Source of the DNA: Homarus americanus
Lineage: Eukaryota > Arthropoda > Malacostraca > Decapoda > Nephropidae
NCBI RefSeq assembly: GCF_018991925.1
Contig: NW_024737042.1
Location: 17,317,678-17,381,677 of the forward strand
DNA length: 64,000 nt
Direction of reading: 5' to 3'
Part shown: positions 4,340-60,500 of the stretch, piece after piece
How the letters are laid out: every line of letters begins with the position of its first letter
Numbering within the stretch: position 1 is the stretch's first letter
Program-made: the position numbers and the translations under genes
The notes under the pieces: generated by a model
What the model saw: only the letters and a program-made list of their open reading frames with translations
Told to the model about the DNA's origin: nothing
Database searches by the model: none

Positions 4340-7010
4340 AAAGTATCCCCACACACCATAAGTACTCCTAAACACCACAAGTACATCCCCCACACCACAA
4401 GAACTCCTTAACACCACAAATACCCTCCACACACCACATGTACACCCCACACACCACAAGTACAAACACACACCTCAATTACACGCCACACACCACAAGT
4501 ACCCCGACACACCACAAGTACACCCACCACACCAAGCACACCTAACACACCACAAATGCCTCCACACACCAGAAGTACCCCACACACCACAAGTACCCCA
4601 CACACCACAATGCACCCCAAACCACCACCACAAGTACGCTCCACACCACCACTAATAACCACGAATATACCCAAAAACCACAAGTACCCCACACACCACA
4701 CGTACCCCACACACCACAAGTATGCCCCACACACCACAAGTACCAACACACACCAAAAGTACATGCCCCACACACCACAAGTACACCCCACACCACAAGT
4801 ATCCCCACACACCACAAGTACACCCCACACACCACAAGTACAAACCAACACACCAAGTACACCCACACACCACAAGTACCCCAACACACCACAAGTACCC
4901 CCACACACTACAAGAACACCCCACACCACAAGTACCCCACACACCACAAGTACACCCCACACACCTTAAGAACACTAACACACCACAGCAACCCAACACA
5001 CCACAAGTAACCCAACACACCACAAGTACACCCAACACACCAAGTACCGACACACACCACACCACAAGCACCCCACACACCACAAGTAGCCCCACACACC
5101 ACAAGTACATCCCCACACCACAAGTACCCCACACACCAACACACCACAAGCACATCCACACAACAAGTACACCCCCCACACCACAAGTACACCCCACACA
5201 CCACAAGTACCCCCCACACACCACAAGTATATCCCCACACCACAAGTACACCCAACAAGTACACCAAACACACCACAAGTACCCCCACACACCAGAAGTA
5301 CACCACCACACCACAAGTACCCCCACAACAAGTACCCCACACACCACAAGCACACCCCACACACCACAAGTACCCCCACACCGCAAGTCACACCTAACAC
5401 ACCACAAGTACCCCCCACACACCACAAGGACCCCATACACCACAAGACCCCACACACCACAGCACACCCCACACACCACAAGTACCAATACACACCACAA
5501 GAACATCCCCACACAAAAGTACATCCCCACACACCACAAGTAGCCCCACACCACAAGTACGCCCCACACACCACAAGCACCAATCCACACCACAAGCACA
5601 CCCCACACACGAAGACATCCCCCACACACCACAAGTACGCCCCACACACCACAAGTACCACACACACCACAAGTACAGCCCCCACACATCGTAAGTACAT
5701 CCCCACACACCACAAGAAGCCCCACACACCACAAGTACCCCACACACCACAAATACACCACACACACAAGTATATCCCCCACACCACAAGTACACCCCAA
5801 GAACACAAGTACATCACCCACACCACAAGTAACCCTATACACCACAAGTATCCCCACACACCACAAGCACACCCCACACACCACAAGTACCCCCACACAC
5901 CACAAGTACTCTCCACACACAACAAGTACACCCCACATCAAAGGTACAATCACACTCCACAAGTACATCCCACATACCACAAGTACACCCACTTACCACG
6001 CAATTCCCCACACCACAAGTAACCCCAAACACCATAAGCACACCCCACAGTACTCCCTACATACAACAAGTACACCCCACACACCACAAGTACATCCCCA
6101 AACAAAAGTACAACCCCAAACCACAAGATCCCCACTACCGTCACCCTCACAAACCACAAGGACTACATATACACCACAAGTACACCCCACACCATAAGTA
6201 CCATCACACACCACAAGTACACCCCATGCACCACAAGTACACCCACTTACCACAAGAGCACCCCACACACCACAAGTACACCCCAAATAACACAAGCACC
6301 CCACAAACAAAAAAGGCCCTATACACCACAAGTACACCCCACCATCATAGGTAAACATCACACACCACAAGTACACCCCACATACCACAAGTACCCCCCA
6401 CACACCACAAGTACACCCCACACACCACAAGTACACTCCACACACCACAAGTACACCCCACACACCACAAGAGCACCCCTACACACCACAAGTACACCCC
6501 ACACACCATTGGTACCATCACACACCACAAGTACACCCCACACCACAAGTTCACCCCACACACCAAAAAAAAAAATACCCCACACCACAAGTGCACCCCA
6601 CACAACAAGCACACCCCACAAACCACAAGTACACCCCACACACCACAAGTACACCCAACACACACCCTCCACAGTACCAACACACACCACAAGTACACCC
6701 CCACACCACAAGTGCACCCAAGACACCACAAGTACCATCACACTCACAAGTACACCCACACAACCACAAGTACACCCCCACACACCACAAGTACACCCCA
6801 CACACCACAAGCACACCCAACACACCACAAGTAATCCTCAACACCACAAGTTCACCCCACATACCACAAGTACACCCCACAAACCACAAGTATACCCAAG
6901 ACACCACAAGTACCATCACACAACACAAGTACACCCCACACACCACAAGTACACCCAACACACCAGAAGTACACCCAGCACACCAGAAGTACCTCAACAC
7001 ACCAGAAGTG
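4340..7010 (+). repeat. Satellite 1 array, left arm (CACACCACAAGTAC units)
   Basis: Well over a hundred 17-20 bp units of the form CCCCACACACCACAAGTAC, the length varying with the number of C and CA steps. The plus strand is nearly all A and C with G and T almost confined to AAGTA, so the minus strand is G/T-rich. Long frames such as the 446-codon one on the minus strand (VLVVCGVYLWCVG) and proline/threonine/histidine-rich plus-strand frames are by-products of a repeat without stop codons. A subset of units carries CATCATAGGTACCATCAC, ACAAACAAAAAGGCCC or ACATCGTAAGTAC variants, which mark a higher-order organisation shared with the arm at 13,517-15,831. Confidence 0.97.
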
Positions 7011-7083
7011 AGGAACTTTTCAAGAGGTATAGGGAGGCGCTGGGGAAGATTAGAGATAGGGAGGATCCCGATAGTATGTGGTG
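7011..7083 (+). pseudogene. 73-bp LINE ORF1 fragment trapped in satellite 1
   Basis: This piece (starting GAGGAACTTTTCAAGAGG and reading LFKRYREALGKIRDRED) is nearly identical to the start of the LINE at 7,549. The satellite units directly upstream are also the same in both places (CAGCACACCAGAAGTACC), so the satellite/LINE junction itself has been duplicated about 540 bp apart. Satellite units resume immediately after it. Confidence 0.85.
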
Positions 7084-7548
7084 CCCCACACACCACAGCA
7101 CACCCAAGACACCACAGTACCATCACACCCAAGTACACCCCACACACCACAAGTACACCCCACACACCACAAGGCACACCCCACACACCACAAGTACACC
7201 CCACACACCCAAAGCACATCCACACACCACAAGTACACCTTAAACATAATTCATTAAGTAATCTCAACACCATAAGTTCACTCCCCACATACCACAGCAC
7301 ACTTGCACAAAACCAAGTATACCCAAGACACCACAAGTACCATCACACAACACAAGTACATCCCCACACACCACAAGTACACCCCACACACCACAGTACA
7401 CCCAAGACACCAAGGCACCATCACACTCCACACCCCACACCACAAGTACACCCCACACACCACAAGTACACCCCACACACCACAAGTACACCCAACACTA
7501 CTCAGAAGTACACCCAGCACAGCAGAAGTACCTCAACACACCAGAAGG
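7084..7548 (+). repeat. Satellite 1, segment between the two LINE junctions
   Basis: The same unit family as the main array. The stretch containing AAGTTCAC, CATACCACA and TATACCCAAGACACC at 7,264-7,360 repeats 6,839-6,940, which supports a local tandem duplication. Confidence 0.95.
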
Positions 7549-13516: not shown

Positions 13517-15831
13517 GTAAGTATCCCCACACACCACAAGTACCCCCCACACCACAAATACACCTAACACACCACAAGTACCCCCACACCAGACGTACCC
13601 CCACACACACCACACACGTATGCCCCACACACCACAAGTACCAACAGACACCACAAGTACATCCCCACACACCACAAGTACATACCCCACACACCACAAG
13701 TATCCCCACACACCACAAGTACACCTACACACCACAAGTATGCCCCACACACCACATACCCCAACACACCACAAGTACCCCCACACACTACAAGCACCCC
13801 ACACACCTCAAGTATACCCCACACACCAAAAGTACACCCAAAATACCACAAGTACCCACACACACACCACACTACCCACCCACACCACAAGTACCCCACA
13901 CACCAAGCACACCCCACACACCACAAGTACCCTCACACACCACAAGTCCAACACACCTTAAGTACACCGAATGCACCACATGTACCCCAACACACCACAA
14001 GTACCCCACACACCCCAGGTACCCCACACACTACAAGCAAGTACCCCACACTTAAATACCCCACACACCAAAAGTACACCCAAAATACCACAATTACCCA
14101 CCCACACCACAAGTACCCCCCACACCACAAGTACCCCACACGCTACAAGCACCCCACACACCACAAGTACACCCCTGCACACCAAAAGCACCCACACACC
14201 ACAAGCACCCCACACACCAGCACCCCACACACCACAGGTACCCACACACTACAAGTACTCCCACACACCACAAGCACACCCTGCACCCCACAAGTACACC
14301 CAACACACCACAAGCACTCCACACACCACATGTACCGACGTACACCACATCAAAAGTACCCCACACACCAAGTAGCCCCACACCACAAGTACATCCCCAC
14401 ACCACAAGTACCCAACACACCACAACCACAAGTACACCCAACACACCAAGTACACCCACACACCACACGTACACCCCCCAACACCACAAGTACACCCCAC
14501 ACACCACAAGTACCCCCACACACCACAAGCACATCCCCACACCACAGCACACCCAAGACGCCACAAGCACACCAAACACACCACAAGTGCCCCCACACAC
14601 CAAGCACCACCACACACCACAAGTACCCCCCACACTAAAGCACCCCCACACACCAGAAGCACACCCCACCCACCACAAGTACCCCCTGACACCACAAGTA
14701 CACCTAACACCCCACAAGTACCCCCACACACCACAAGTACGCTCCACATCCCATACCAATACACCACAAGTACATCCCCACACATCGTAAGTACATCCCC
14801 ACACACCACACGTAGCCCCACACACCACAAGTACACCCCACACACCACACCCCCACACAACGCAAGTACACCCCACACCACAAGTCCCCCACACACCACA
14901 AGTACACCACACACACAACAAGTACCCCCACCACAAGTACACCCCACACACCACAAGTACATCCCACATACCACAAGTACCCCAACACACCACAAGTACC
15001 CACACACCACAAGCACGCCCACAGGTACTTCCACACACAACAAGTACACCCCACACACCACAAGCACGCCCCACAGGTACTTCCACACACAACAAGTACA
15101 CCCCACGCACAACAAGTACATCCCCAAACAAATACACCCCACTTACCACAAGATCCCTACTTACCACAAGTACCCCACAAACCACAAGGCTCCTATACAC
15201 CACAAGTACACCCCACACATCATAGGTACCATCACACACCACAAGTACCTCCCATGCACCACAAGTACACCCACTTACCACAAGTACCCCACACACCACA
15301 AGCACACCCCACACACCACAAGTACCCCCACAAACAAAAAGGCCCTATACACCACAAGTACACCCCACTCATCATAGGTACCATCACACACCACACGTAC
15401 ACCCACTTACCACAAATACCCCCCCACCACCACAAGTACACCCCACACACCACAAGTACCCCTATGCACCACAAGTACATCCCACACACCACAAGTACAC
15501 CCCACACACCACAAGTACATCCCACACACCACAAGTACACCCCACACACCACAAGTACACCCCACACACCACAAGTACCCCTATACACCACAAGTACCCC
15601 CATACACCACAAGTACATCCCACACACCACAAGTACGCCCCACACATCATAGGTACCATCACACACCACAAGTACATCCTGCACACCACATTTTCACCCC
15701 ACACACCAAAAGTACCCCCACACCACAAGTGCGCGCCACACACAAGTACACTCTACAAACCACAAGTACCCCCACACACCACAAGTTCTCCCCACACATC
15801 ACAGGTACCCCCACACACAACACAAATACAA
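13517..15831 (+). repeat. Satellite 1 array, right arm
   Basis: The same unit family and strand bias as the left arm. It begins directly after the LINE tail. Landmarks ACATCGTAAGTAC (about 14,783), ACAAACAAAAAGGCCC (about 15,331) and CATCATAGGTACCATCAC (about 15,220 and 15,369) occur in the same order as in 5,686-6,360. Long minus-strand frames (up to 406 codons) are repeat artefacts. Confidence 0.97.
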
Positions 15832-28815: not shown

Positions 28816-29129
28816 GACGCAAGCAGAAAAATATATTGGGAGCAAGTAATAAGATCATTAAATTACAAGAAGTTGTAACCACTAGACTAAGGTTAGGATA
28901 TAAGTACCTCTGGCAGTATATCCCTCAAGCAGATGTAAACAAGACTAAATGTAAAGTGTGTGGTCAAACATATGGCCACTCGCTCGAATACTACGTCCTT
29001 GACTGTGTGAAGATGGAACCATTTAGGGTCAGGTCCAAGTACGCAGTGTGTGAGATAGCACAACACTTTGTCCCTAATTGCAAGATAGCTGACATATTAA
29101 GATTGTATCCACCTTTTTGCACTCAGTAG
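28816..29129 (+). pseudogene. LINE C-terminal fragment (zinc-finger-like region after RT)
   Basis: The frame 28,836-29,129 reads TTRLRLGYKYLWQYIP, KCKVCGQTYGHSLEYYVLDC and RLYPPFCTQ to a stop. The C-X2-C...H...C pattern with RLRLGY in front is the conserved C-terminal tail of several crustacean and insect LINEs. Upstream, 28,795-28,836 reads ELIDEFDASRKIYWEQVIRS in another frame. Neither RT nor a poly-A tail is attached. Confidence 0.7.
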
Positions 29130-29278
29130 CTATATCATATCTGTAGAACCAAACACACAATGTGCTTGAATACCTCCGAGGCAAATGTGAATAACAAAGT
29201 GTGCGGCCAGACATATTGCCTCACACTCCTGTACTCACGCAGTTGCGAATAAGTCACACTGCCATTTTTTAGGGTCTA

Positions 29279-29581
29279 GGACAACTGGCCGCCGCCATCT
29301 GGCCGCAGCCCAACTGGCCGCGGGAAACTCGCCGCGGCCGACTGGCCGCCATATGGAACTTTTTGTTGACAACCTAACCTAACCTAACCTAACCTAACCT
29401 AACCAAACCAAACCTAACCTAACCTAACATAACATAACCTAACCTAACCTAACCTAACCTAACCTAACCTAACCTAACCTAACATAGAGCGCAAAAATAG
29501 GCGTTTGCAGTTTACCCCCAGTCCGCGGCGAGTTTCCCGCGGCCAGTTGGGCTGCGGCCAAATGGCGGCGGCCAGTTGTCC
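29279..29581. mobile_element. Foldback element with 59-bp inverted arms around a TTAGG array
   Basis: The left arm 29,279-29,337 and the right arm 29,523-29,581 are reverse complements at 58 of 59 positions; the single difference is CCATCTGG against CCATTTGG. The arms are GC-rich with repeated TGGCCGC steps (ACTGGCCGCCGCC, CAACTGGCCGCGGG). The 185-bp centre holds the CCTAA array and short unique spacers (CATATGGAACTTTTTG; GAGCGCAAAAATAGGCG). No open frame. A MITE or foldback transposon is the likely class; no target duplication was found. Confidence 0.85.
29371..29484. repeat. Interstitial telomere-type (AACCT)n / (TTAGG)n array
   Basis: About 23 five-base units, nearly all AACCT, with a few AACCA and AACAT variants. 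TTAGG is the ancestral arthropod telomere repeat. The array lies exactly between the two foldback arms, away from any end of the sequence. Confidence 0.95.
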
Positions 29582-29584
29582 CAT

Positions 29585-29735
29585 TCCCATTTTTTTAAAC
29601 ACTCGGGGCAGCAAGTCCGAAGAGCATTCCCGAATGTTAGGTTACTATTTAGTAACCCGTCAAATGGATTCGTCAAACTCGAATATCAATCCTGAACATC
29701 GGGTTACTATTTAGTAGCCCGAACGCCGCAACTCG
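29585..29735. repeat. Palindrome-bearing repeat (CGGGTTACT...AGTAACCCG), copy 1
   Basis: Contains GGTTACTATTTAGTAACC (29,640-29,657) and CGGGTTACTATTTAGTAGCC (29,699-29,718), two palindromes about 60 bp apart, plus ATTTTTTTAAACACTCGGGG at 29,590. The same parts occur in inverted order at 41,590-41,765. Confidence 0.6.
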
Positions 29736-36361: not shown

Positions 36362-36495
36362 CTAACGTAAGTGTCAAACCTAATCTAACGTAAGTGTTAA
36401 ACCTTGATTTTTTCTAAACTAACCTTACCTTACGCAAGTGTTAATCCTTGATTTTTTCTAACCTAACGTAAGTGTTAAACCTTGATTTTTCTTTT
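36362..36495. repeat. About 45-bp tandem repeat, 3 copies
   Basis: Units contain CTAACGTAAGTGTTAAACC followed by TTGATTTTTTCTAA. They lie just downstream of the Tigger stop. Confidence 0.75.
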
Positions 36496-40471: not shown

Positions 40472-40578
40472 TGGTCTACAAAGATACCTCTAACCTAACC
40501 TAATAACCCTTCCTAACATTACCTAACCTAACCTGACCTAATCTAACCTAAGCTAACTTAACCCAATTATCTTGTAGA
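40472..40578. mobile_element. Small inverted-repeat element with telomere-like core, copy 2
   Basis: The ends GTCTACAAAGATA (about 40,474-40,486) and TATCTTGTAGAC (about 40,568-40,579) are inverted with one gap. Between them are about 70 bp of degenerate CCTAA units (ACCTAACCTAATAACCC, ACCTAACCTGACCTAATC). The flanking GCACACTATAGTAACAC is shared with copy 1 at 31,308-31,605. Confidence 0.65.
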
Positions 40579-41952: not shown

Positions 41953-42352
41953 TACACCCCCTCATACAATGAGTACTCCCCTGACAGCAAGTACCCCCTG
42001 ATACAACAAGTACCGCTCTGAAATAACAAGTACCGTCATCCACAACAAGTATCCCAACACACAATAAATACCCCCCACATACCACAAGTACCCCCACACA
42101 CTACAAGTACCCCCCCCACACACTACAGTATAAGTACCCTCACACACTGCAACTATCCCCACACAGCACAAGTACCCCACACACAACAAGTACCCCCACA
42201 CACAAGTACTTCCCACACCACAAGTACTCCACACACCACAAGCACCCCCACACACCACAAGTACCCCCCACACCCCTAAGTATCCCCAACACCACAACTA
42301 CCCCCCACACACCACAAGTACCCCACACATACAAGTATTCCCACACATTACA
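41953..42352 (+). repeat. Satellite 1 patch
   Basis: About 20 diverged units of the CACACCACAAGTACCCC type, more degenerate than at 4-19 kb (for example TACAACAAGTACC, CTACAAGTACC). Confidence 0.9.
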
Positions 42353-42969
42353 AGTACTTCTATACAGGCAGCTATCAACCAGGGAGGTACTACAGCCTGG
42401 GAAGATATTGGAAGCATAATGTATTGTCTTGACTTGACTTGACGTCTGTAGATAAGGTAGAAGGCTATTGCTTGTAATGCTGGGTGGGAGGGCCGGGATG
42501 AGGATTGGAAGTTCATTGATGGCGATTTGTGGGAGAGGGGATTGGCTTAGGATCAAGGAAAAGAGGGAGCAACCAGATATGCTGAGGTTATAATAATTAT
42601 ATTTGAACTTACATCTTGCGTGATTAGGTTCTAGCTCTCAAGCCTTTGTCATTTAGTTAAAAGTATGTTTATTTTGAGGTAGCCATTGTTTCAAGGAAGG
42701 GGTGACGACCTCTGGCCAGGTTCTTGTGGAGCTGGCTGAGCAGCGTATCTTTTGTTTTAATAAGAGTAGAAGGAAGGGCAAGAAGACGGGTTGAGAGGCC
42801 AAGGATAGTGTCCTTGATCACTCTCATCTTTTAATGAAGCGTTTTGTTTATATAGTAGGAAGTTTAATTTAGGAAGAGTTGTAGGATCCAACTTGCTACT
42901 TTGTTCACGGAGGTGGTCCTATCTTTTGGTTTAATTGAAAGATTGAAGCTTTACTTGAAGGTACAGTAT
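42353..42969. other. Unassigned stretch
   Basis: No gene. CAGCCTGGGAAGATAT followed by AATGTATTGTCT at 42,394-42,428 is repeated with small changes at 43,589-43,622, on the other side of the Jockey fragment. Confidence 0.4.
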
Positions 42970-44189: not shown

Positions 44190-44602
44190 TGTAAAGAAAA
44201 AACAACAACACAAGTACCTCCACACACCACAAGAACCTCCACACACCACAAGTACCTCCACACACCACAAGAACCTCCACACACCACAAGAACCTCCACA
44301 CACCACAAGTACCTCCACACACCACAAGTACCTCCACACACCACAAGTACCTCCACACATCCACAAGTACCTCCACACACCACAAGACCCCACACACCAC
44401 AAGTACCTCCACACCACAAGTACCCCACACACACACACACCACAAGTACCCCCACACACCACAAGTACCCCCACACACCACAAGTACCCCCACACACCAC
44501 AAGTACCCCCACACACCACAAGTACCCCCACACACCACAAGTACCCCCACACACCACAAGTACCCCAACACACCACAAGTTCCCCCACACACCACCCCGG
44601 GT
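44190..44602 (+). repeat. Satellite 1 patch, homogeneous
   Basis: About 20 units, first of the ACCTCCACACACCACAAG kind (19-20 bp), then of the ACCCCCACACACCACAAG kind. They are far more uniform than the patch at 41,953. It ends at CACACCACCCCGGG. Long frames on both strands are repeat artefacts. Confidence 0.95.
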
Positions 44603-46074: not shown

Positions 46075-46855
46075 ACAGTTGGGTTCTACAGGGTTGGTTC
46101 AGCTGGGTTCTACAGGGTTGGTTCAGCTGAGTTCTACAAGGTTTGTTCAGCTGGGTTCTAAAGGGTTTGTTCAGCTGGGTTCTTCAGAGTTGGTTCAGCG
46201 GGTTATATGTGGTTGGTTCAGCTGGGTTCTACAGGGTTGGCTCAGCTGGGTTCTACAGGGTTGGTTCAGCTGGGTTCTACAGGGTTGGTTCAGCTGGGTT
46301 CTTCAGAGTTGGTTCAGCGGGGTTATATGTGGTTGGTTCAGCTGGGTTCTACAGGGTTGTCTCAGCTGGGTTCTACAGGGTTGGTTCAGCTGGGTTCTAC
46401 AGGGTTGGTTCAGCTGGGTTCTTCAGAGTTGGTCCAGCTGGGTTCTTCAGAGCTGGTGCAGCTGGGTTATACGGGGTTGGTTCACCTGGGTTCTACAGGG
46501 TTGGTTCAGCTGGGATCTGCAGGGTTGGTTCAGCTAGGTTCTACAGGGTTGGTTCAGCTGGGTTCTACAGGGTTAGTTCAGCTGGGTTCTACAGGATTGG
46601 TTCAGCTGGGTTCTGCAGGGTTGGTTCAGCTGGGTTCTACAGGGTTGGTTCAGCTGGGTTCTTCAGAGTTGGTCCAGTTGGGTTCTACAGGGTTAGTTCA
46701 GCTGGGTTCTACAGGATTGGTTCAGCTGGGTTCTGCAGGGTTGGTTCAGCTGGGTTCTACAGGGTTGGTTCAGCTGGGTTCTTCAGAGTTGGTCCAGTTG
46801 GGTTCTACAGGGTTGGCTCAGCTGGGTTCTTCAGAGTTGGTCCAGCTGGGTTACA
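46075..46855 (+). repeat. 24-bp minisatellite with 120-bp higher-order unit
   Basis: About 32 units built on GGTTGGTTCAGCTGGGTTC with a TACA, TTCA or TGCA step. Because 24 is a multiple of three and the unit lacks stops, all three plus frames stay open (GFYRVGSA, VQLGSTGL, WVLQGWFS). 46,561-46,680 and 46,681-46,800 are identical 120-bp blocks of five units, and the GGTTATATGTGG variant at 46,201 and 46,321 is also 120 bp apart. No start context or domain suggests a real protein. Confidence 0.9.
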
Positions 46856-48004: not shown

Positions 48005-48552
48005 CTATATGATAAACAACTCTTTCCATGAATAACATAAACTTAAAACCTTTTCCTGAGCGTAGTGCAAGTTTTTCTCTGTTTCTCTTTTCTCATTTCG
48101 TGACTTTAACTGACCTAAAAACCATATTATTAGAATCTGATTAACTTTCTCTCTGATATCGTTCGTTAAGAGCACTAGTAGTGACTGCTACTAATTACAC
48201 GGAGTTTATGGCATCTTAAAGACATTTTGTATACATTAATTTTGGAGACCGCATATCAACATTGTCATATATTAAGAGGTACACTTGTGGACAAAAATAA
48301 TTCGGCAGGGAGGGAGTGTAAGCCACGCCTACCTCTTAATTAACTAAAAAACAATTAAATTTGTGGTGCAGAAAGAAAATCGCAAACCCATAATCGCCAC
48401 CTCCATGCGACTGTATCAAGACTCCATCTACCCCTGCCCTCCCATGCACCACCTCCCTCCCTCCCTCTCATTTTTTTATCTGCAAATGTGCAATTAAGAT
48501 GACACAAACAGTAAAGGATGAAATAGTGCGAATTTCGGTCACACAGGCATTC
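48005..48552. other. Unassigned stretch
   Basis: Nothing recognised. CCCTCCCTCCCT-type pyrimidine runs occur at 48,450-48,475 before the satellite starts. Confidence 0.45.
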
Positions 48553-51500
48553 AAGATTAAGTGATCACGCACACATACTGTACATTGGCAGGCAAAAGTA
48601 AGTGATCGCACATACATACACCGGCAGGCAGGAGTAAGTTATCACGTACACATACTGTACACTGGCAAGCAAGAGTAAGCGATCACGCATACATACTGTA
48701 CACTGGCAAGCAAGAGTAAGTGATCACGCACACACACTGTACATTGGCAGGCAAGAGTAAGCGATCACGCATACATACTGTACACTGGCAGGAGAGAGTA
48801 AGTGATCACGCACGCATACTGTACATTGGCAGGCAAGAGCAAGCGATCACGCACACATACTGTACATTGGCAGGCAAAAGTAAGTGATCGCACATACATA
48901 CACTGGCAGGCAAGAGTAAGCGATCACGCATACACACTGTACACTGGCAAGCAAGAGTAAGCGATCACGCACACAGACTGTACATTGGCAGGCAAGAGTA
49001 GGTGATCACACACACATACTGTACATTGGCAGGCAAGAGTAAGCGATCACGCACACATACTTTACATTAGCAGGCAAGAGTAAGTGATCACGCACAAATA
49101 CTGTACAGTGGTAGGCAAGAGTAAGTTATTACGCTCACATACTGTACATTGGTAGGCAAGAGTAAGTGACCACGCACACATACTGTACATTGACAGGCAA
49201 GAGTAAGTGATCAAGCACACATACTGTACATTGGTAGGCAAGAGTAAGTGACCACGCTCACATACTGTACATTGGTAGGCAGGAGTAAGTGATCACGCAC
49301 ATATACTGTACATTGGCAGGCAAGAGTAAATGATCACGCACACATACTGTACATTGGCAGGCAAGAGTAAGTGATGACACACACATACTGTACATTGGGA
49401 GGCAAGAGTAAATGATCACGCGCACATACTGTACATTGGCAGGCAAGAGTAAATGATCACGCACACATACTGTACATTGGCAGGAAAGAGTAAGTGATCA
49501 CGCACATATACTGTACATTGGCAGGCAAGAGTAAGTGATGACACACACATACTGTACATTGGGAGGCAAGAGTAAATGATCACGCGCACATACTGTACAT
49601 TTGTAGGCAAGAGTAAGTGATCACGCACACATACTGCACATTGGCAGGAAAGAGTAAGTGATCACGCACATATACTGTACATTGGCAGGCAAGAGTAAAT
49701 GATCACGCACACATACTGTACATTGGCAGGCAAGAGGCGGATCACGCACACATACCGTACATTGGCAGGCAAGAGTAAATGATCACGCGCACATACTCGT
49801 ACATTGGCAGCAAGAGTACATCACGCACAATATTACCAGCATTGGCAGGCAAGAGTAAGTGATCACGCACACATACTGTACATTGGCAGGCAAGAGTAAA
49901 TGATCACGCGCACATACTGTACATTGGTAGGCAAGAGTAAGTGATCACGCAAACATACTGTACATTGGCAGGCAAGAGTAAGTGATATCGCACACATTCT
50001 GTACATTGGCAGGCAAGAGTAAGTGATCACTCACACATACTGTACATTGGCAGGCAAGAATAAATGATCAAGCACACATACAGTACACTGGCAGGCAAGA
50101 GAAAGTGATGACACACACATACTGTACATTGGTAGGCAAAAGTAAGTGATCACGCACACATACTGTCCACTAGCAGGCAAGAGTAAGTGATCACGCACAC
50201 ATACTGTACATTGGCAGGCAAGAGTAAGTGATCACGCACACATACAGTCCACTGGCAGGCAAGAGTAAGTGATCACGCACACATACTGTACATTGGCAGG
50301 CAAGAGTAAGTGATCACGCACGCATACTATACACTGTGTGGCAGACAAGAGTAAGTGATCACGCACCAATACTGTACAGTGGCAGGCAAAAAGTAAGGAT
50401 CGCACATACATACATGCCAGGCAAGAGTAAGGATCACGCCAATATTATTTCAGCACTGGCAGGCAAGAGTAAGTGATCATGCACACATACCGTCCTATTG
50501 GCAGGCAAGAGCAAGTGATCACGCACATACCGTACACTGGCACGTTAAGAGTAAATGATCACGCATACATACCGTACATTGGCAGGCAAGAGTAAGGGTT
50601 CACGCACAAATACTGTACATTGCAGGCAAGAGTAAGTGATCACGCACACATACTGAAACATTGGTAGGCGCAAGAGGCGTTCACGCACACATACTCGTCC
50701 AGACCGGCAGGCAATGAGGCGATCAGTCACGCATACTGTACATTGGCAGGCAAGAGTAAAATGATCACGCACACATACTCGTCCACTGGCAGGCAAGAGT
50801 AAGTGATCACGCACCAATACTGTACACTGGCAGGCAAAAGTAAGTGATCGCACATACATACACTGGCAGGCAAGAGTAAGCGATCACGCACACATACTGT
50901 ACATTGGTAGGCAAGAGTAAGCGATCACGCACACATACTGTACATTGGCAGGCAGGAGTAAGTGATCACGCAGACATATTCTACACCGACAGGCAAGAGT
51001 AAGTGATCACGCACACATACTGTACATTGGCAGGCAAGAGTAAGCGATCATGCCCACATACTGTACAATGGCAGGCAGGAGTAAATGACCACGCACACAT
51101 ACTGTAGACTGGCAGGCAAGAGAAAGTGATCATGCACACATACTGTACATTGGCAGGCAAGAGTAAATGATCACGTGCACATACTGTACATTGGCAAGCA
51201 AGAGTAAGTGATCATGCACACATACTGTACATTGGCAGGCAAGAGTAAATGATCACGCACACATACTGTACATTGGCAGGCAAGAGTAAGTGATCACGCA
51301 CACATACTGTACATTGGCAGGCAAGAGTAAATGATCCGCGCACACATACTGTACATTGGCAGGCAGGTAAGTGATCACGCATGTATACTATGCACTGGCA
51401 GGCAAGAGTAGTGATCACGCACCATACTGTATGCTGGCGAGCCAGTAAGTGATCCTTTTATACATACGCATGAGCCAGGTAAGTGATCCGCACCTGGCGA

Positions 51501-54500
51501 GCAAGTGATGATCACACGCCGCCACACACTGGCAGGCAAAGAGTAAGTTATGCGCACACATACTGTAAACTGGCAGGCAATAGCACGTTATCACGCACAT
51601 ATACTGTACACTGGCAAGCAAGCGTAATGATCACGCACACATACGGTACACTGGCAAGCAAGAGTAAGCGATCACTCACACATACTGTACATTGGCAGGG
51701 AAGAGTAAGTGATCACGCACACATACTGTACATTGGCTGGTAAGAGTAAGCGATCACGCACGCATACTGTACACTGGCAGGCAATAGTAGGTGATTACGC
51801 ACACCTACTGTACATTGGCAGGCAAGAGTAAATCATCACGCACACATACTGTACATTGGTATGCAAGAGTAAGTTATCACGCAAGCATACTGTACACTGG
51901 CAGGCAAGAGTAAGTGATCACGCACCAATACTGTACACTGGCAGGCAAAAGTAAGTGATCGCACATACATACACTGGCTGGTAAGAGTAAGTTATCACGC
52001 ACACATATTGTACACTGGCAAGCAAGAGTAAGCGATCACGCACACATACTGTACACTGGCAAGCAAGAGTAAGTGATCACGCACACACACTGTACATTGG
52101 CGGGCAAGGTAAGTGATCCATATACACATACACTTTCTTGAGCAAGTAGTGATCGCGCACACATACTTTTGCACTGGCGGGCAAGTAAGTGATCACGCAC
52201 ATACAGTAGCGAGCAGAGTAAGCGATCACACATACGCACTGGCAGGCAAGAGTAAGTGATCACGCACACGCGCGAGCAGGTAGTGATCGCATACATACAC
52301 TGGAGGCAGAGTAAGTGATCATGCACACATACACTGTGAACGCAGTGGCGATCACACACACATACTGCATTGGCGAGCAGAGTAAATGATCCTTTACATA
52401 CCTTATATTGGCAGGCAAGTGGTGATGACACGCACATACTGTACGTTGGCAGGCAAGGTAAGTGATCATGCACACTATACTGTCACTAGCAGGCAAGAGT
52501 AAGTGATCACGCACACATACTGTATATTGGCAGGCAAGAGTAAGTGATCACGCACACATACTGTCCACTGGCAGGCAAGAGTAAGTGATCACGCACACAT
52601 ACTCTACATTGGCAGGCAAGAGTAAGTGATCACGCACACATACTGTACATTGGCAGGCAAGAGTAAATGATCACGCACGCATACTGTACACTGGCAGGCA
52701 AGAGTAAGTAATCACGTAAACATACACTGGCAGGCAAGAGTAAGTGATCACACATACATACTGTACACTGACAGGCAAGAGTAAGTTATTACGCACACAT
52801 ACTGTACACTGGCAAACAAGAGTAAGCGATCACGCACACATACTGTATATTGGCAGGGAAGAGTAAGTGATCACGCACACATACTGTACATTGGCTGGCA
52901 AGAGTAAGTGATCACACACACATACACTGGCAGGCAAGAGTAAGCGATCACGCACACACACTGTACATTGGCTGACAAGAGTAAGTGATCACGCACAAAT
53001 ACTGTACATTGGCAGGCAATAGTAAGTTATCACGCTCACATACTGTACATTGGTAGGCAAGAGTAAGTGACCACGCACACATACTGTAAATTGACAGGCA
53101 AGAGTAAGTGATCACGGTCACATACTGTACATTGGTAGGCAAGAGTAAGTGACCACGCACACATACTGTACATTGGCAGGCAAGAGTAAGTGATCACGCA
53201 CCAATACTGTACAGTGGCAGGCAAAAGTAAGTGATCGCACATACATACACTGGCGGGCAAGAGTGGTTATCACGCACACGGATACTACACTGTCGGCGAG
53301 AGAGTATGTGATCGTACTACTGTACGTTGGAGGCAAAATGGTGATCACGCATTACCTGTATGGCGGAAGTAATGATCGCACATACTGTACATTGGCGGGC
53401 AAAGGTGGGTTCACGCACAAATACTGTCACGGCGGGCAATGAGTAAGTGATGTCACACATACTGGACTTGGCGGGCAGAGTAAATGATCGCACATGCTTT
53501 CCACTGGCTGGCAAGGTAGTGATCACGCGAATACTGTACACTGGCAGGCAAGTAAGTGATGCTTATATGCGTGGCGGGCAAAAATGTAGGATTATGCACA
53601 TACTGTGCATTGCAGGCAAGAGTGGTGATCACTCACATGCTGCGTTGGCAGGCAAGAGTAAGTGATCTGTCATACTGTATGGCAGGGGAAGAGTGAAGTG
53701 ATGACGCGCACATACTGTGCGTTGGCGGGCAAGTGTAGTGATGTGCATATACTGTACTTATTGAGCAGGTGTGTGATCACGCACACATACTGTATATTGG
53801 CGGGCAGAGTAAGTGATCAGCACACATGCTCTCATTGGCAGGGAAGTGTGTGATCACGCGCACGATGTTTACACTGGCAGACAAAAAGTAAGTGATCGCG
53901 CATACATACACTGGCAGGCAAGAGTAAGTGATCACGTAAATGGACTGGCGGGCAAGGAAGGTGATCACGCATACATACACTTTGCAGGCAAGAGTAGTGG
54001 TCATTCGCATACTGTACACTGGCAGGCAAGTGAAGTTATTGTGCACACGTGCACTGTACATTTGCTGGCAAGGTAAGTGATCACGCACACATACACTGGC
54101 GGGCAAGAATAAGTGATCACATAGCATTCACTGGCGGGCAGAGTAAGTGATCACGCACACATACTGTACACTGGCAGGCAAATGAGGTGATCACGCACAC
54201 ATGTACATTGGCGGGGAAATGTGTGATCGCACGCATACTGTACATTGGCTGGCAAGTGAGGTTCACGTATGAATGCTGTACATTGGCGGGCAATGTAGGT
54301 GATCACGCATACTGAACATTGGTGGAGGTAAAGTTGTTCACGCACACTTGTCATTGGCAGGCAGAGTATGTGATCACGCACACATACTGTACATTGGCAG
54401 TCAGAGTAAGTGATAACACCCTGTACATTGGCAGGGCAGAGTAAGTGTTCACACAAATGCTGTCATTGGCAGGCGGGGTAGTGATCACTGAACATTGGTA

Positions 54501-57500
54501 GGCAGGAGTTAGTGTTCACGCGCACATACTGTCCACTGGCAGGCAATGGTAAGTGATCACGCGCATCTGTATATTGGCGAGGGTAAATGATCACGCACCA
54601 TACTGTACACTGGCAGGCAAAGTAAGTGATCGCACATACTATACGCTGGCGGGCAGAGTAAAGTGATCACGCACACATACTGTACTTGGTGAGCAAGAGT
54701 AAAGTGATCACGACATACTATGCGCTGGCGGGGTAGGTAAGTTATCACATTCGCATACTGTGTGCGCGGCAGGGTAAGTGATTATCACGCACACGTATTC
54801 TACAGACAGGCAAGATTGTGGTCGATCACGCACATACTGTACATTGGCGGGCAGGTAAGTGATCTTGCCACATGACAATGGCAGGCAGGGTAAGTGATCA
54901 CGCACACGAGTGCACTGGCGGATGAGTAAGTGATCATGCACACATACTGTACATTGGCAGGCAAGGTAGTGATCACGTGCACGCCTGTACATTGGAGCAA
55001 GAGTGTGATCGCTGCTGTACATTGGCAGTCAGAGTAAATGGTTCACGCATACTGTACATTTGCTGGCAAGAGTAAGTGATCACGCACACTATACTGTGAG
55101 CGAGTAGCGATCTTGTACATTCACTGGCAGGCAAGAGTAGTGATCGCCGCACATACACTGGCAGGCAAGAGTAAAGCGATCACATACATATGCTGGCAGG
55201 CAGAGTAAGCGATCACACATACATGTATACTGGCGGGCAGGTGGTTGATCACATACATATGCTGGCGGAGGCAAGGTAAGCGATCACCGCAGCCACATAT
55301 GCTGGCGGGCGAATGGCGATCGCATACATATGCTTGCGAGGCAAGAGTAAGCGATCACCGTACGCGCTGGCTGGCAGGTAAGCGATCACACATACATATG
55401 CTGGCGGAGCAGGTAAGCGATCACATACATATGCCTGGCAGGCAAGAGTGGCGATCACACAGCCACATACACTGGCTGGCAAGGTAAGCGATCACATACG
55501 CTTATATCTTTGGCAGGCAAGAGTAAGCGATCACACATACACATATGCTGGCGGAGGCAGGTGGCGATCACACACACGCCGCACTGGCAGGCAGGTAAGC
55601 GATCACATACATATACTGGCAGGCAAGGTAACGATCACATACACATATACTGACGAGCGAGTGGCGATCACACATACATATACTGACGAGCAAGAGTAAG
55701 CGATCACCACGCATCCTGGCAGGCAAGAGTGGCGTCACACATGCACATATGCTGGCGGGCAAAATAAGCGATCACCACATATATGCTGGCAGGCAGGTAA
55801 GCGATCACACATACATACACTGGCTGGTAAGTAAGTTATCACGCACACATATTGTACACTGGCAAGCAAGAGTAAGCGATCACGCACACATACTGTACAC
55901 TGGCAAGCAAGAGTAAGTGATCACGCACACACCTGTACATTGGCAGGCAAGAGAAAGTGATCACATATACATACACTGGCAGGCAAGAGTAAGTGATCGC
56001 GCACACATACTTTACACTGGCAGGCAGGTAAGTGATCACGCACACACATGCAATGGCGAGCAAGGTAAGCGATCACATACATGCACTGGCAGGCAAGAGT
56101 AGTGATCACGCACATACACTGGCAGGCAAGAGTAAGTGATCACACATACATACACTGAGGCAAGAGTAAGTGATCATGCACATACAGTACATTGGCAGGC
56201 AAGAGAAAGTGATGACACACACATATTGTACATTAGCAGGCAAGAGAAGTGATCACACACATACTGTCCACTAGCAGGCAGGTAAGTGATCACGACACAT
56301 ACTGTACATTGGCAGGCAAGAGTAGTGAACACGCACACATCTGTCACTGGCAGGCAAAGTAGTGATCACGCACATACTGTCATTGGCGGGCAGAGTAAGT
56401 GATCACGCACACACACTGTAGCTGGCAGACAGAGTAAGTGATCACGCACACATACTGTACATTGGCAGGCAGAGTAAGTGAACACGCACATACTCTCCAC
56501 TGGCAGGCAAGAGTAGTGATCACGCACACATGCTACATTGGCAGGCAAGAGTAAGTGATCACACACATACTGTACATTGGCAGGCAGGTAAGTGATCACG
56601 CACATACTGTACATTGGCAGGCAAGTAAGTGATCACGCGCGCATGCCTGTACACTGGCAGACAAGAGTAAGTGATCACGCACCAATACTGTACAGTGGCA
56701 GGCAAAGTAAGTGATCGCACATACATACACTGCCAGGCAAGAGTAAGTGATCACGCACATACTGTCACTGGCAGGCAGGTAAGTGATCATGCACATACTG
56801 TCCATTGGCAGGCAAGGTAGTGATCACGCACAATCACTAACCAGGCAAGAGTGATTCGCACACATACTGTACCAGTGCACGCAAGAGTAAATGATCACGC
56901 ACACATACTGTACATTGGCAGGCAAGAGTAAGGGTTCACGAATACTGTACATTGGCAGGCAAGGGTAAGTGATCACGCACACATACTGAACATTGGTAGG
57001 CAAAGGTAAGTGTTCACGCACACCTGTCCACTGGCAGGCAATGAGTAAGTGATCAGTCACGCATACTGTACGTGCAGGCAAGAGTAAATGATCATGCACA
57101 TACTGTACACTGGCAGGCAGGTAGTAATCACGCACCAATACTGTACACTGGCAGGCAAAAGTAAGTGATCGCATATACATACACTGGCAGGCAAGGTAAG
57201 CGATCACGCACACATACTGTACATTGCAGGCAGAGTAAGTGATCACACACACATGCTATATGGCAGAGGTAAATGATCACGCACACATACTGTATATTAG
57301 GGCAAAGAGTAGGTGATGACACACACATACTGTACATTGGCAGGCAAGAGTAAGTGATCATGACACATACTGTCACTAGCAGGCAAGAGTAAGTGATCAC
57401 GCACACGCCTATTGGCAGGCAAGAGTAAGTGATCACGCACACATACTGTCCACTGGCAGGCAAGAGTAAGTGATCACGCACATACTCATTGGCAGGCAAG

Positions 57501-60500
57501 TAGTGATCACGCACACATACTGTACATTGGCAGGCAAGAGTAAATGATCACGCATACTGTACACTGGCAAGCAAGAGGTAAGTAATCACGTAAACATACA
57601 CTGGCAGGCAAGAGTAAGTGATCACACATACATACTGTACACTGACAGGCAAGAGTAAGTTATTACGCACACATACTGTACACTGGCAAACAAGAGTAAG
57701 CGATCACGCACACATACTGTATATTGGGGGGAGTAAGTGATCACGCACATACTGTACGTGGCTGGCAAGAGTAGTGATCACACACATACACTGGCAGGCA
57801 AGAGTAGTGATCACACATACGCCACTGGGAGGCAAGGTAGTTATCACGCACAATGCATGCATTGGCGGGCAAGAGTAAGCGATCACGCACACATACTGTA
57901 CATTGGCAGGCAAGGTAAGTGAACACGCTACTGTCCACTGGCGGGCAAGAGAGTGATCACGCACACATACTGTACATGGCAGGCAAGAGTAAGTGATCGC
58001 ACACATACTGTACACTGGCAGACAAGAGTAAGTGATCACGCACACATACTGTACATTGGCAGGCAGGTAAGTGAACACGCACATACTGTCCACTGGCAGG
58101 CAGAGTAAATCACGCACACATGCACTGGCGGTGGCAGGCAAGAGTAAGTGATCACACACACATACTGTACATTGGCAGGCAAGAGTAAGTGATCACGCAC
58201 ATACTGTACATTAGCAGGCAAGAGTAAGTGATCACGCAAGCCATACTGTACACTGGCAGACAAGGTAGTGATCACGCACCAGCACTGTGCAGTGGCAGGC
58301 AAAGTAAGTGATCGCACATGCATACACTGCCAGGCAAGTGAAGTGATCACGCACACATACTGTACCTGGCAGGCAAAGTAGTGATCATGCACATACTGTC
58401 CATTGGCAGGCAAGTGGTGATCCAGCACATACTGTCCACTAGCAGGCAAGTTAAGTGATTCCGCACACATACTGTACACTGGCACGCAAGTAAATGATCA
58501 CGCACACATACTGTACATTGGCAGGCAAGTGGGGTTCACGCACAAATACTGTGCATTGGCAGGCAGAGTAAGTCACGCACACCTGCGAACATTGGTAGGC
58601 AAGAGTAAGTGTTCGCACATACTGTCACTGGCAGGCAATGAGTAAGTGATCAGTCACGCATACTGTACATTGGCAGGCAAGAGTAAATGATCATGCACAC
58701 ATACTGTACACTGGCAGGCAAGGGTATGTAATCGCACCAATACTGTACACTGGCAGGCAAAGTAAGTGATCGCACATACATACACTGGCAGGCAGGTAAC
58801 GATCACGCACACATACTGCTTTGCAGGCAAGGTAAGTGATCACACACATACTGCATGGCAGGCAAGGTAAATGATCCGCACACATACTGTATGTTGGCAG
58901 GCAAGAGTGGTGATCACCAATACTTGGGCAGGCAAGAGTAAGTGATCCACACATACCATCACTGGCAGGCAAAAGTAGTGATCACGCACACATATACATT
59001 GGCAGGCAGAGTAAGTGATCACGCACATACTGTACACTGGCAGGCAAGAGTAAGTGAACACGCACACATACTGTATGGCAGGCAAGAGTAAGTGATCACG
59101 CACATACTGTGCATTGACGGGCAGGTAAGTGATCACGCACACATACTGTACACTGGCAGGCAAGGTAAGTAATGCGCAACATACACTGACGGGCAAAAGG
59201 TGTCACATACATACTGACGGCAGGTAAATCCATACACTGGCGAGGAGTAAGTGATCACACATACACATACACTGGAGGCAAGAGTAAGTTATCACGCAAA
59301 ATACTGTACATTGGCAGGCAAATGGCGATCACGCACATACTGTACATTGGCTGACAAGAGTAAGTGATCGCACAAACATGTTGCAGTGGTGAGCAATAGT
59401 AAGTTATCACGCTCATACTGTACATTGGTGGGCAAGTGAAGTGACCACGCACACATATAAATTGACAAAAAGTAAGTGATCGCGGTCATACTGTACATTG
59501 GTGGGCAGAGTAAGTGACCACGCACATACTGTACATTGGCAGGCAAGTGGTGATCACGCACATACTGTCATTGGCAGGCAAGGTAAGTGATCACGCAAGC
59601 ATACTGTCACTGGCAGACAAGAGTAAGTGATCGCAACAATACTGTGCAGTGGCAGGCAAATGTAGTGATCGCATACATACACTGCCAGGCAAGTGTAAGT
59701 GATCACTGCACATACTGTACTGGCAGGCAAGAGTAAGTGATCACGCACACATACTGTACATTGGCAGGCAAGAGTAAGTGATCACGCAAGCATACTGTAC
59801 ACTGGCAGACAAGAGTAAGTGATCACGCACCAACACTGTGCAGTGGCAGGCAAATGAAGTGTCAGCATATACGCATACACTGGCAGGCAAGAGTAGTGAT
59901 CACGCACACATACTGTACACTGGCAGGCAGAGTAAGTGATCATGCACACATACTGTCCATTGGCGAGCAAAGGTAAGTGATCACGCACACTGGCCTGCTG
60001 GCAGGCAAGAGTAAATGATCCACGCACACATACTGTCCATTGGCAGGCAAAGTGGGGTTCACGCACAAATACTGTCCACTGAGCAATGATGGTGATCAGT
60101 CACGCATACTGTACATTGGCAGGCAAGAGTAAATGATCACGCACACATACTCACTGGCAGGCAAAGAGTAGTGATACACACATACTACATCACTGGCAGG
60201 CAAGGTAAGTGATCACGCACCAATACTGTACACTGGCAGGCAAAAGTAAGTGATCGCACATACATACTGGCAGGCAAGAGTAGCGATCACCTACCTGCAT
60301 ACCATTGGGCGAGTAAGTGATCACGCACACAAACTGCATTGGCTGGCAAGGTAAATGATCACGCACATACTGTATATTGGCAGGCAAGAGTAAGTGATAC
60401 ACACACTACTGTACATTGGCGGGCAGGTAAGTGATGCGCCTGTCGCGGCGGGGCAGGTAGTGATGCGCACACTGTTACATTGGCAGGCAAGAGTAAGTGA

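What the first reader, a model, noticed from the sequence alone, without database searches (positions are those of the whole stretch)
29279..29581. Foldback element built around a telomere-type TTAGG array
Two 59-bp GC-rich arms match as inverted repeats at 58 of 59 positions and enclose about 23 CCTAA units plus short spacers, with no coding capacity. The array sits centrally between the arms. Interstitial telomere repeats are usually explained by break repair or old chromosome ends, neither of which predicts precise flanking inverted arms. The arms' near identity suggests recent movement or gene conversion. A mobile element that distributes telomere repeats would explain scattered TTAGG sites.
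Basis: partly seen in the sequence, partly recalled or inferred. Interest (0 to 1): 0.75.

Follow-up and report, generated by a model that had tools for sequence, protein, structure and literature searches.

The report
Transposon carrying captured telomere repeats
A small jumping-DNA family in this large genome lost its middle, probably more than once, and had it replaced by chromosome-end (telomere) repeats, which it then carried to new places; most scattered telomere repeats in the genome appear to have another origin.

Summary
In detail: 58 of 59 arm positions match and a telomere-type array lies between. The element is larger than reported (29272-29588, 317 bp) and belongs to a mobile family: a 37-nt arm probe hits 291 places in the 2.2-Gb genome; of 73 distinct two-ended insertion sites with the window's left array joint, 59 have perfect 9-bp target duplications; empty sites exist (one in this window, for another copy). 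The anatomy matches Tm1/Phantom Mutator-foldback transposons: asymmetric 7-bp ends, GGA, 14-bp subrepeats and, in one copy with the same left end, an unbroken 461-aa FLYWCH+MULE transposase. Array-free relatives show that (CCTAA)n replaces deleted interior. Copies read show seven left joints, each with 1-5 nt of microhomology, at least eight right joints, and one array orientation. Best reading: telomere repeats were captured, probably repeatedly, as filler in internal gaps, multiplied by transposition, then changed length in place. The family is not the main source of scattered TTAGG: 67,691 positions match six perfect units; 0 of 20 arrays sampled from that listing lie in it. Whether telomerase, a telomere, an interstitial array or a sibling copy supplied the repeats is open. 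New variant of a known kind.

The parts
29263..29271 (+). left target-site duplication (CATTTTTTA)
   Evidence: 7 of 9 identical to 29589-29597; 59 of 73 distinct two-ended sites of joint-A copies have a perfect 9-bp duplication
29272..29278 (+). left outer 7-bp motif GGGTCTA, differing from the right end
   Evidence: 95 of 97 detected left ends read GGGTCTAGGA
29279..29350 (+). left terminal inverted repeat: GGA followed by about 14-bp subrepeats (CAACTGGCCGCCGC type)
   Evidence: 72-bp family consensus identical on both sides; TRF period 14, 4.9 copies at 29282-29350
29351..29370 (+). native left inner sequence, ending at joint A (GTTGACA/ACCTAACC)
   Evidence: pattern across the joint hits 138 places genome-wide, reversed control 0
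29371..29483 (+). captured telomere-type array, about 22.6 units of CCTAA (TTAGG on the minus strand), with CCAAA and CATAA variants
   Evidence: TRF; another 37 places in the genome continue from the same left sequence into native interior instead
29484..29522 (+). native right inner sequence, entered at right joint class J2 (CATAGAGCGC)
   Evidence: compared with copies L046 and L049, which have no array
29523..29581 (-). right terminal inverted repeat, 17 bp shorter than in the long copies
   Evidence: 58 of 59 match to the left arm; missing stretch by comparison
29582..29588 (+). right outer 7-bp motif CATTCCC (GGGAATG on the minus strand)
   Evidence: 96 of 101 detected right ends read TCCCATTCCC
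29589..29597 (+). right target-site duplication (ATTTTTTTA)

Best explanation
The window holds one copy of a short, non-autonomous member of a Phantom-type Mutator family with foldback-like (Tm1-like) ends. Shown: the family moves, makes 9-bp target duplications, has relatives with a FLYWCH+MULE transposase gene, and carries (CCTAA)n where interior sequence is missing, at several different joints. Inferred: breaks or gaps inside copies, most simply those left by excision and unfinished gap repair, were filled by telomere-type repeats, with a left-side 3' end pairing by 1-5 nt with a TTAGG-strand template and the right side joined by end joining. Some products stayed mobilisable through their intact ends and spread. 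Afterwards arrays lengthened or shortened in place, as seen in copies that share an insertion but differ in unit count. Confidence that it is a Mutator/foldback element is about 0.95; that captures happened more than once, about 0.65.
For: Copy number: 291 arm hits at up to 2 mismatches, reversed control 0; 138 hits across joint A, control 0. Mobility: 59 of 73 two-ended distinct sites have perfect 9-bp duplications; of 75 copies tested for empty sites in the sequence held, 10 gave a match, 7 of them with 0-2 mismatches in 35, among them L013 (0) and L026, whose empty site is in this window at 28882 (1). Class: FLYWCH 3.5e-12 and MULE 1.1e-11 in an unbroken 461-aa frame of L172, which has the same left end. 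Capture: all 37 hits with the native left sequence were fetched; 18 carry an array, at joints B (14), C, G, H (one each) plus one composite, and 19 show none in the stretch read; joints D, E, F in L115/L125, L127, L121. Left microhomology A2 B2 C5 D/E3 F1 G2 H3, against a null of 76% zero and 6% two or more per distinct product. In-place length change: L009 16 against L076 5 CCTAA; L055 18 against L109 23; eight loci with duplication CCACTCCCC, 7-13.
Against: One array orientation throughout (100 of 119 loci scored so, 18 without a call, one apparent flip, L123, which its printed sequence shows to be a scoring artefact) fits spread within the family by sibling-templated repair as well as repeated capture. 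Right joints have mixed and often no microhomology, some with non-telomeric filler, so no one enzyme pathway is shown. Joint C has whole-unit homology on both sides and could have begun as a short seed that expanded. 14 of 73 sites lack a perfect duplication. Two pairs sharing an insertion (L011/L012, L016/L018) have equal arrays. Array-free deletions exist too (L113, L129, L130, L153, L166). No copy was read that has an intact transposase and both ends with a duplication.
Confidence: 0.75

Rival explanations
1. A single founding capture (joint A) gave the family its array; all other joint types arose when breaks in long copies were repaired from a sibling's array, or by recombination inside the terminal repeats.
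For: One array orientation in the copies scored. L028 is a composite of a long and an array copy joined within the terminal repeat, and L121 (joint F) keeps right joint J1. Joint A has many right joints on one left joint.
Against: Joints B, C, G and H lie at different places of the native interior, and the copies tested (L023, L043, L156, L176) keep the AAAATTAGG right side, unlike the J1 copies tested (L030, L036, L121).
Confidence: 0.3
2. Telomerase itself added TTAGG units to the right-hand 3' end of a break, and the extended end was then joined to the left side.
For: The array strand is the one telomerase would make on the right-hand 3' end. Some right joints have telomere homology (L036 3, L034 1, J3 2, B 2, C 5, D 2).
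Against: Homology is more consistent at the left joints; other right joints have none or carry non-telomeric filler (J1 0, J2 -2, J4 -1, J5 0, J6 0, E 0, G -1, H -6). Tens of thousands of existing positions could serve as template instead.
Confidence: 0.25
3. Ordinary microsatellite birth: a chance CCTAA-like seed at a deletion joint expanded by slippage, with no capture of telomeric DNA.
For: Joint C has CCTAA on its left and TAACC on its right in the native sequence; arrays clearly change length in place.
Against: At the other left joints only 1-3 nt match, so the same pentamer would have to arise by chance at several joints, always the telomere unit.
Confidence: 0.1
4. A local break-repair event or old chromosome end, not a mobile element.
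For: 20 of 20 other sampled arrays lie outside this family, and only one of these loci (L137) shows an inverted match of 11 nt or more across its array (12 nt), so such a history is plausible for them.
Against: 291 arm hits, 9-bp target duplications and empty sites for this family.
Confidence: 0.02

Closest known systems
Tm1 Mutator/Foldback family of root-knot nematodes (PMC3169594; passages and section 5 read)
   Same: Asymmetric 7-bp outer motifs, then GGA, then 13-15-bp (mostly 14-bp) subrepeats; mostly 9-bp target duplications; FLYWCH+MULE transposase assigned there to the Phantom subclass; MITE-like copies.
   Different: The 7-bp motifs and subrepeat letters differ. Tm1 copies include histone-hairpin ones; the word 'telomer' has 0 occurrences in that paper's main text.
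Phantom subclass of Mutator (Marquez and Pritham 2010; known here only through PMC3169594, the paper is not held)
   Same: N-terminal FLYWCH plus MULE domain in one 461-aa frame.
   Different: No transposase tree was built; interior telomere arrays are not mentioned in what was read.
MITEs with hitchhiking (GTCY)n microsatellites (Coates et al. 2011; seen only as a reference entry and table row in PMC6947457)
   Same: By its title, a short inverted-repeat element that carries a simple repeat.
   Different: Here the repeat is the telomere unit and replaces deleted interior at several joints.
Tetris foldback transposon of Drosophila virilis (PMC4079207, passages read)
   Same: Foldback structure with tandem repeats in the arms, 8-10-bp duplications, Mutator membership suggested by its authors.
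   Different: Its tandem repeats (TIR-220) are part of the arms, not telomere repeats between them.
Short interstitial telomeric repeats formed at break repair (recalled); abundant AACCT arrays in Penaeus monodon (PMC3124438, passages read)
   Same: Abundant AACCT arrays through a genome.
   Different: The passages read do not place those arrays in a mobile element.
Oxytricha telomere-bearing elements (recalled) and Magnaporthe MoTeR (opening of an abstract listed)
   Same: Mobile elements associated with telomere repeats.
   Different: Telomere repeats at element ends, or elements inserted in telomeres, rather than interior replacement in a foldback MITE (partly recalled).

Membership tests
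Mutator superfamily (Phantom subclass) | MULE transposase domain (PF10551) | tested here: met
   L172 frame, E 1.1e-11, above cut-off; also a frame of L050, 8.8e-10
Mutator superfamily (Phantom subclass) | N-terminal FLYWCH zinc finger | tested here: met
   same L172 frame, E 3.5e-12; L048, 2.5e-12
Mutator superfamily (Phantom subclass) | target duplication of about 9 bp | tested here: met
   59 of 73 distinct two-ended sites of joint-A copies perfect at 9 bp; the window copy itself matches at 7 of 9
Mutator superfamily (Phantom subclass) | intact transposase gene between two family ends with a duplication | tested here: inconclusive
   L172 has the left end and an unbroken frame, but no right end was found in the 4.2 kb read; L171 has both ends and a 9-bp duplication, but its listed frames show no stretch like the MULE part (not scanned by profile)
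Mutator superfamily (Phantom subclass) | transposase groups with Phantom in a tree | not tested
   no tree was built
Tm1-like foldback ends | asymmetric 7-bp outer motifs followed by GGA | tested here: met
   GGGTCTA in 95 of 97 left ends, GGGAATG in 96 of 101 right ends, then GGA
Tm1-like foldback ends | 13-15-bp tandem subrepeats, variable number | tested here: met
   TRF period 14; arm variants with extra units and arm indels
Tm1-like foldback ends | purine-rich inner motif D | tested here: inconclusive
   by eye, GGGAAACTCG lies within the arm, but no clear 12-bp purine stretch
MITE | short, many copies, no transposase gene, conserved ends | tested here: met
   317 bp, too short for the 461-aa gene; 291 arm hits
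Interstitial telomere left by local break repair | no target duplication and no repeated element around it | tested here: not met

The most novel reading that the evidence does not exclude
Internal breaks of this transposon are healed again and again with telomere DNA, in one polarity and primed by left-side microhomology, so that the family works as a recorder of telomere-type healing at transposon-made breaks and as a vehicle that turns repair scars into mobile telomere arrays.
Probability: 0.4. Interest if true: 0.65.

Novelty: new variant of a known kind. Interest (0 to 1): 0.5.

Why it matters
Interstitial telomere arrays are usually read as scars of break repair or fusion (recalled). Here the same kind of repeat lies at several deletion joints inside one mobile family whose array-free relatives are still present, so joints, polarity, microhomology and later length change can be read directly. 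That makes the source of the filler testable. It also shows that telomere arrays can spread by transposition, although by a rough estimate this family accounts for only about one percent or less of them here.

Tried and rejected
Rejected: a local repair event (291 arm hits). Gene conversion as the reason for this copy's matching arms: consensus arms are identical family-wide, and in the first 40 bp of 67 of 80 two-ended copies (13 set aside for many differences, mostly arm indels) 108 left and 115 right changes gave only 9 shared ones; part of these changes are misaligned indels. The family as source of scattered TTAGG: 0 of 20 sampled arrays; that sample was picked from the head of a listing in contig order, mostly small contigs, and is not random.

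Led nowhere: the protein search of the own genome did not complete. The homologue search gave 6 short proteins among 8 candidates, 4 with a FLYWCH domain, without informative names. Ten literature searches, seen as listings, showed no title or abstract opening on telomere arrays inside a Mutator or foldback element; the library lacks most subscription journals. The organism was not identified.

Limits: one search scored 40 of 305 candidates. Of 138 joint-A hits only 100 are listed; 93 joint-A array copies, window included, were read. The 20 arm loci are the first unread ones of the list; later ones in that list and the unlisted ones were mostly not fetched. Among the 37 native-left loci several share flanks and may be one insertion each (six with ACATGGGGC; L153/L166; L157/L170), and most were read for only 0.5-1 kb. 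The null for microhomology uses about 180 nt of the element's own sequence. The figure of about 24,000 runs scales 36 runs, counted by eye, in the first 100 positions. The foreign-looking interiors of L065, L118, L119, L122 and L128 were not tested.

Full report
What is there. The two arms match at 58 of 59 positions, and the longest exact inverted match, 38 nt, lies far above the maximum of 14 in 100 shuffles. Between them is an array of 22.6 AACCT units. The element runs from 29272 to 29588: GGGTCTA, then GGA and 14-bp subrepeats, a short native stretch, the array, another native stretch, the second arm, and CATTCCC. The flanking 9-mers match at 7 of 9, as expected if one T-run changed length.

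It is a mobile family. A 37-nt arm probe has 291 hits at up to 2 mismatches and none for the reversed control. A probe across the window's left array joint (joint A) has 138 hits and none for the control. I read 93 joint-A array copies, window included, at 82 distinct insertion sites; 73 sites have both ends, and 59 of the 73 show a perfect 9-bp duplication. For the empty-site test I joined the flanks of 75 copies with duplications of at most one mismatch and searched the sequence held. Ten gave a match: L013 without mismatch in 35 nt, about 1.1 kb from the element in the same contig; L026 in this window at 28882 with one mismatch; L043 (2) in a retroelement stretch of L048; L062 (1), L066 (2), L071 (0) and L088 (1) in tandem-repeat surroundings; L041, L014 and L015 only with 3-4 mismatches.

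Its class. Consensus arms are identical over 72 bp and bordered by different 7-bp ends. The 8.4-kb copy L048 has a FLYWCH frame and nested reverse-transcriptase frames. L050 has a MULE domain beside the same left end. L172 has the same left end and one unbroken 461-aa frame with FLYWCH (3.5e-12) and MULE (1.1e-11). L171 is 2440 bp with both ends and the duplication CTACAGGAG, but its listed frames show no stretch like the MULE part. Passages and section 5 of PMC3169594 describe Tm1 with the same order of parts: asymmetric 7-bp ends, GGA, 13-15-bp repeats, mostly 9-bp duplications and a FLYWCH+MULE transposase of the Phantom subclass. I call this Phantom-type with Tm1-like foldback ends. A transposase tree was not made, and no copy with an intact gene and both ends was read.

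The array replaces deleted interior. All 37 hits with the native left inner sequence were fetched, most for 0.5-1 kb: 18 carry an array and 19 show none in the stretch read. Fourteen share joint B, with small variants (L022, L023, L111, L117, L154, L155, L157, L159, L167, L168, L170, L174, L175, L178; L157 and L170 share one duplication and may be one insertion). L043, L156 and L176 have joints C, G and H of their own, and L028 is a composite. Among 20 further arm loci taken from the list, 11 carry arrays (L111 and L117, counted above, and L112, L115, L120, L121, L123, L124, L125, L126, L127), adding joints D, E and F. At joint A the 82 sites fall into right-joint classes J7 29, J1 20, J3 15, J2 8 (the window's class), J5 2, J4 1, J6 1 and other 6. 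Array-free deletions exist too, such as L113, L129, L130, L153 and L166.

How it may work. Microhomology at the left joints is 2 (A), 2 (B), 5 (C), 3 (D/E), 1 (F), 2 (G) and 3 (H). The null gives 76% zero and 6% two or more per distinct product. At the right joints it is lower and mixed: J1 0 (variants L036 3, L034 1), J2 -2, J3 2, J4 -1, J5 0, J6 0, B 2, C 5, D 2, E 0, G -1 and H -6, negative values being inserted bases; J7 was not scored. This fits a left-side 3' end pairing with a TTAGG strand and copying it, followed by end joining on the right. Joining of a telomerase-extended right end by left-side microhomology is not excluded. The array has one orientation in the copies scored (100 of 119 loci, 18 without a call, and the L123 artefact) and in the later ones, which a polar mechanism or sibling-templated repair would both give. 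L023, L043, L156 and L176 (joints B, C, G, H) keep the AAAATTAGG right side seen in long copies, while the J1-type copies tested (L030, L036, L121) have AAAAATAGG, which speaks for separate events. I put recurrence at about 0.65.

Afterwards. Copies that share an insertion can differ in array length: L009 and L076 have 16 and 5 CCTAA, L055 and L109 have 18 and 23, and eight loci with duplication CCACTCCCC have 7-13; two other pairs (L011/L012, L016/L018) do not differ. These may be duplicates, alleles or assembly copies.

What it does not explain. Six perfect units match 67,691 positions genome-wide, with 1 for the reversed control. The first 100 listed positions fall into 36 runs by my count, which scales to very roughly 24,000 runs. 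Of 93 joint-A copies read, 59 hold six perfect units in a row. Of 20 arrays from that listing read with flanks, 0 belong to this family. The family therefore carries about one percent or less of the genome's arrays. PMC3124438 reports abundant AACCT arrays in a shrimp.

Novelty. The transposon type is known, and MITEs carrying simple repeats are known (a reference entry seen). Ten searches of one library showed me no listing on telomere arrays as recurrent interior filler in a Mutator or foldback element. I file it as a new variant of a known kind.

Noticed in passing
window 28882-28916: A stretch here is the empty-site counterpart of another family copy's insertion (L026): 34 of 35 positions match across its joined flanks.
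   Followed up: yes
L034 and L035 (C5576, about 5.8 kb apart): Two family copies in opposite orientation have exchanged flanking 9-mers (CTGAACACC occurs beside one end of each), as expected after an inversion between them.
   Followed up: partly
L172 434-1819 (-): An unbroken 461-aa FLYWCH+MULE transposase frame; six loci (L152, L158, L160-L163) share the left flank ACATGGGGC. The family may have been active recently.
   Followed up: partly
L065, L118, L119, L122, L128: Copies whose interior looks unrelated to the family, possibly captured host or other element DNA.
   Followed up: no
L025 and L028: Chimeric copies joined at an element end or within the terminal-repeat subunits.
   Followed up: partly
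window 48552-60435: A 12-kb degenerate tandem array with a 41-bp period, continued in pieces towards 63984.
   Followed up: no
window 4347-7547, 13519-15822, 41984-42357, 44205-44595: Four separated arrays of one minisatellite type (CCCCACACACCACAAGTAC).
   Followed up: no
window 46076-46852: A 24-bp array, 32.4 copies at 87% matches, with a period divisible by three; coding not tested.
   Followed up: no
window 36377-36471 and 40490-40563: Two further short, imperfect AACCT-like stretches; no other arm match was found in the window.
   Followed up: partly
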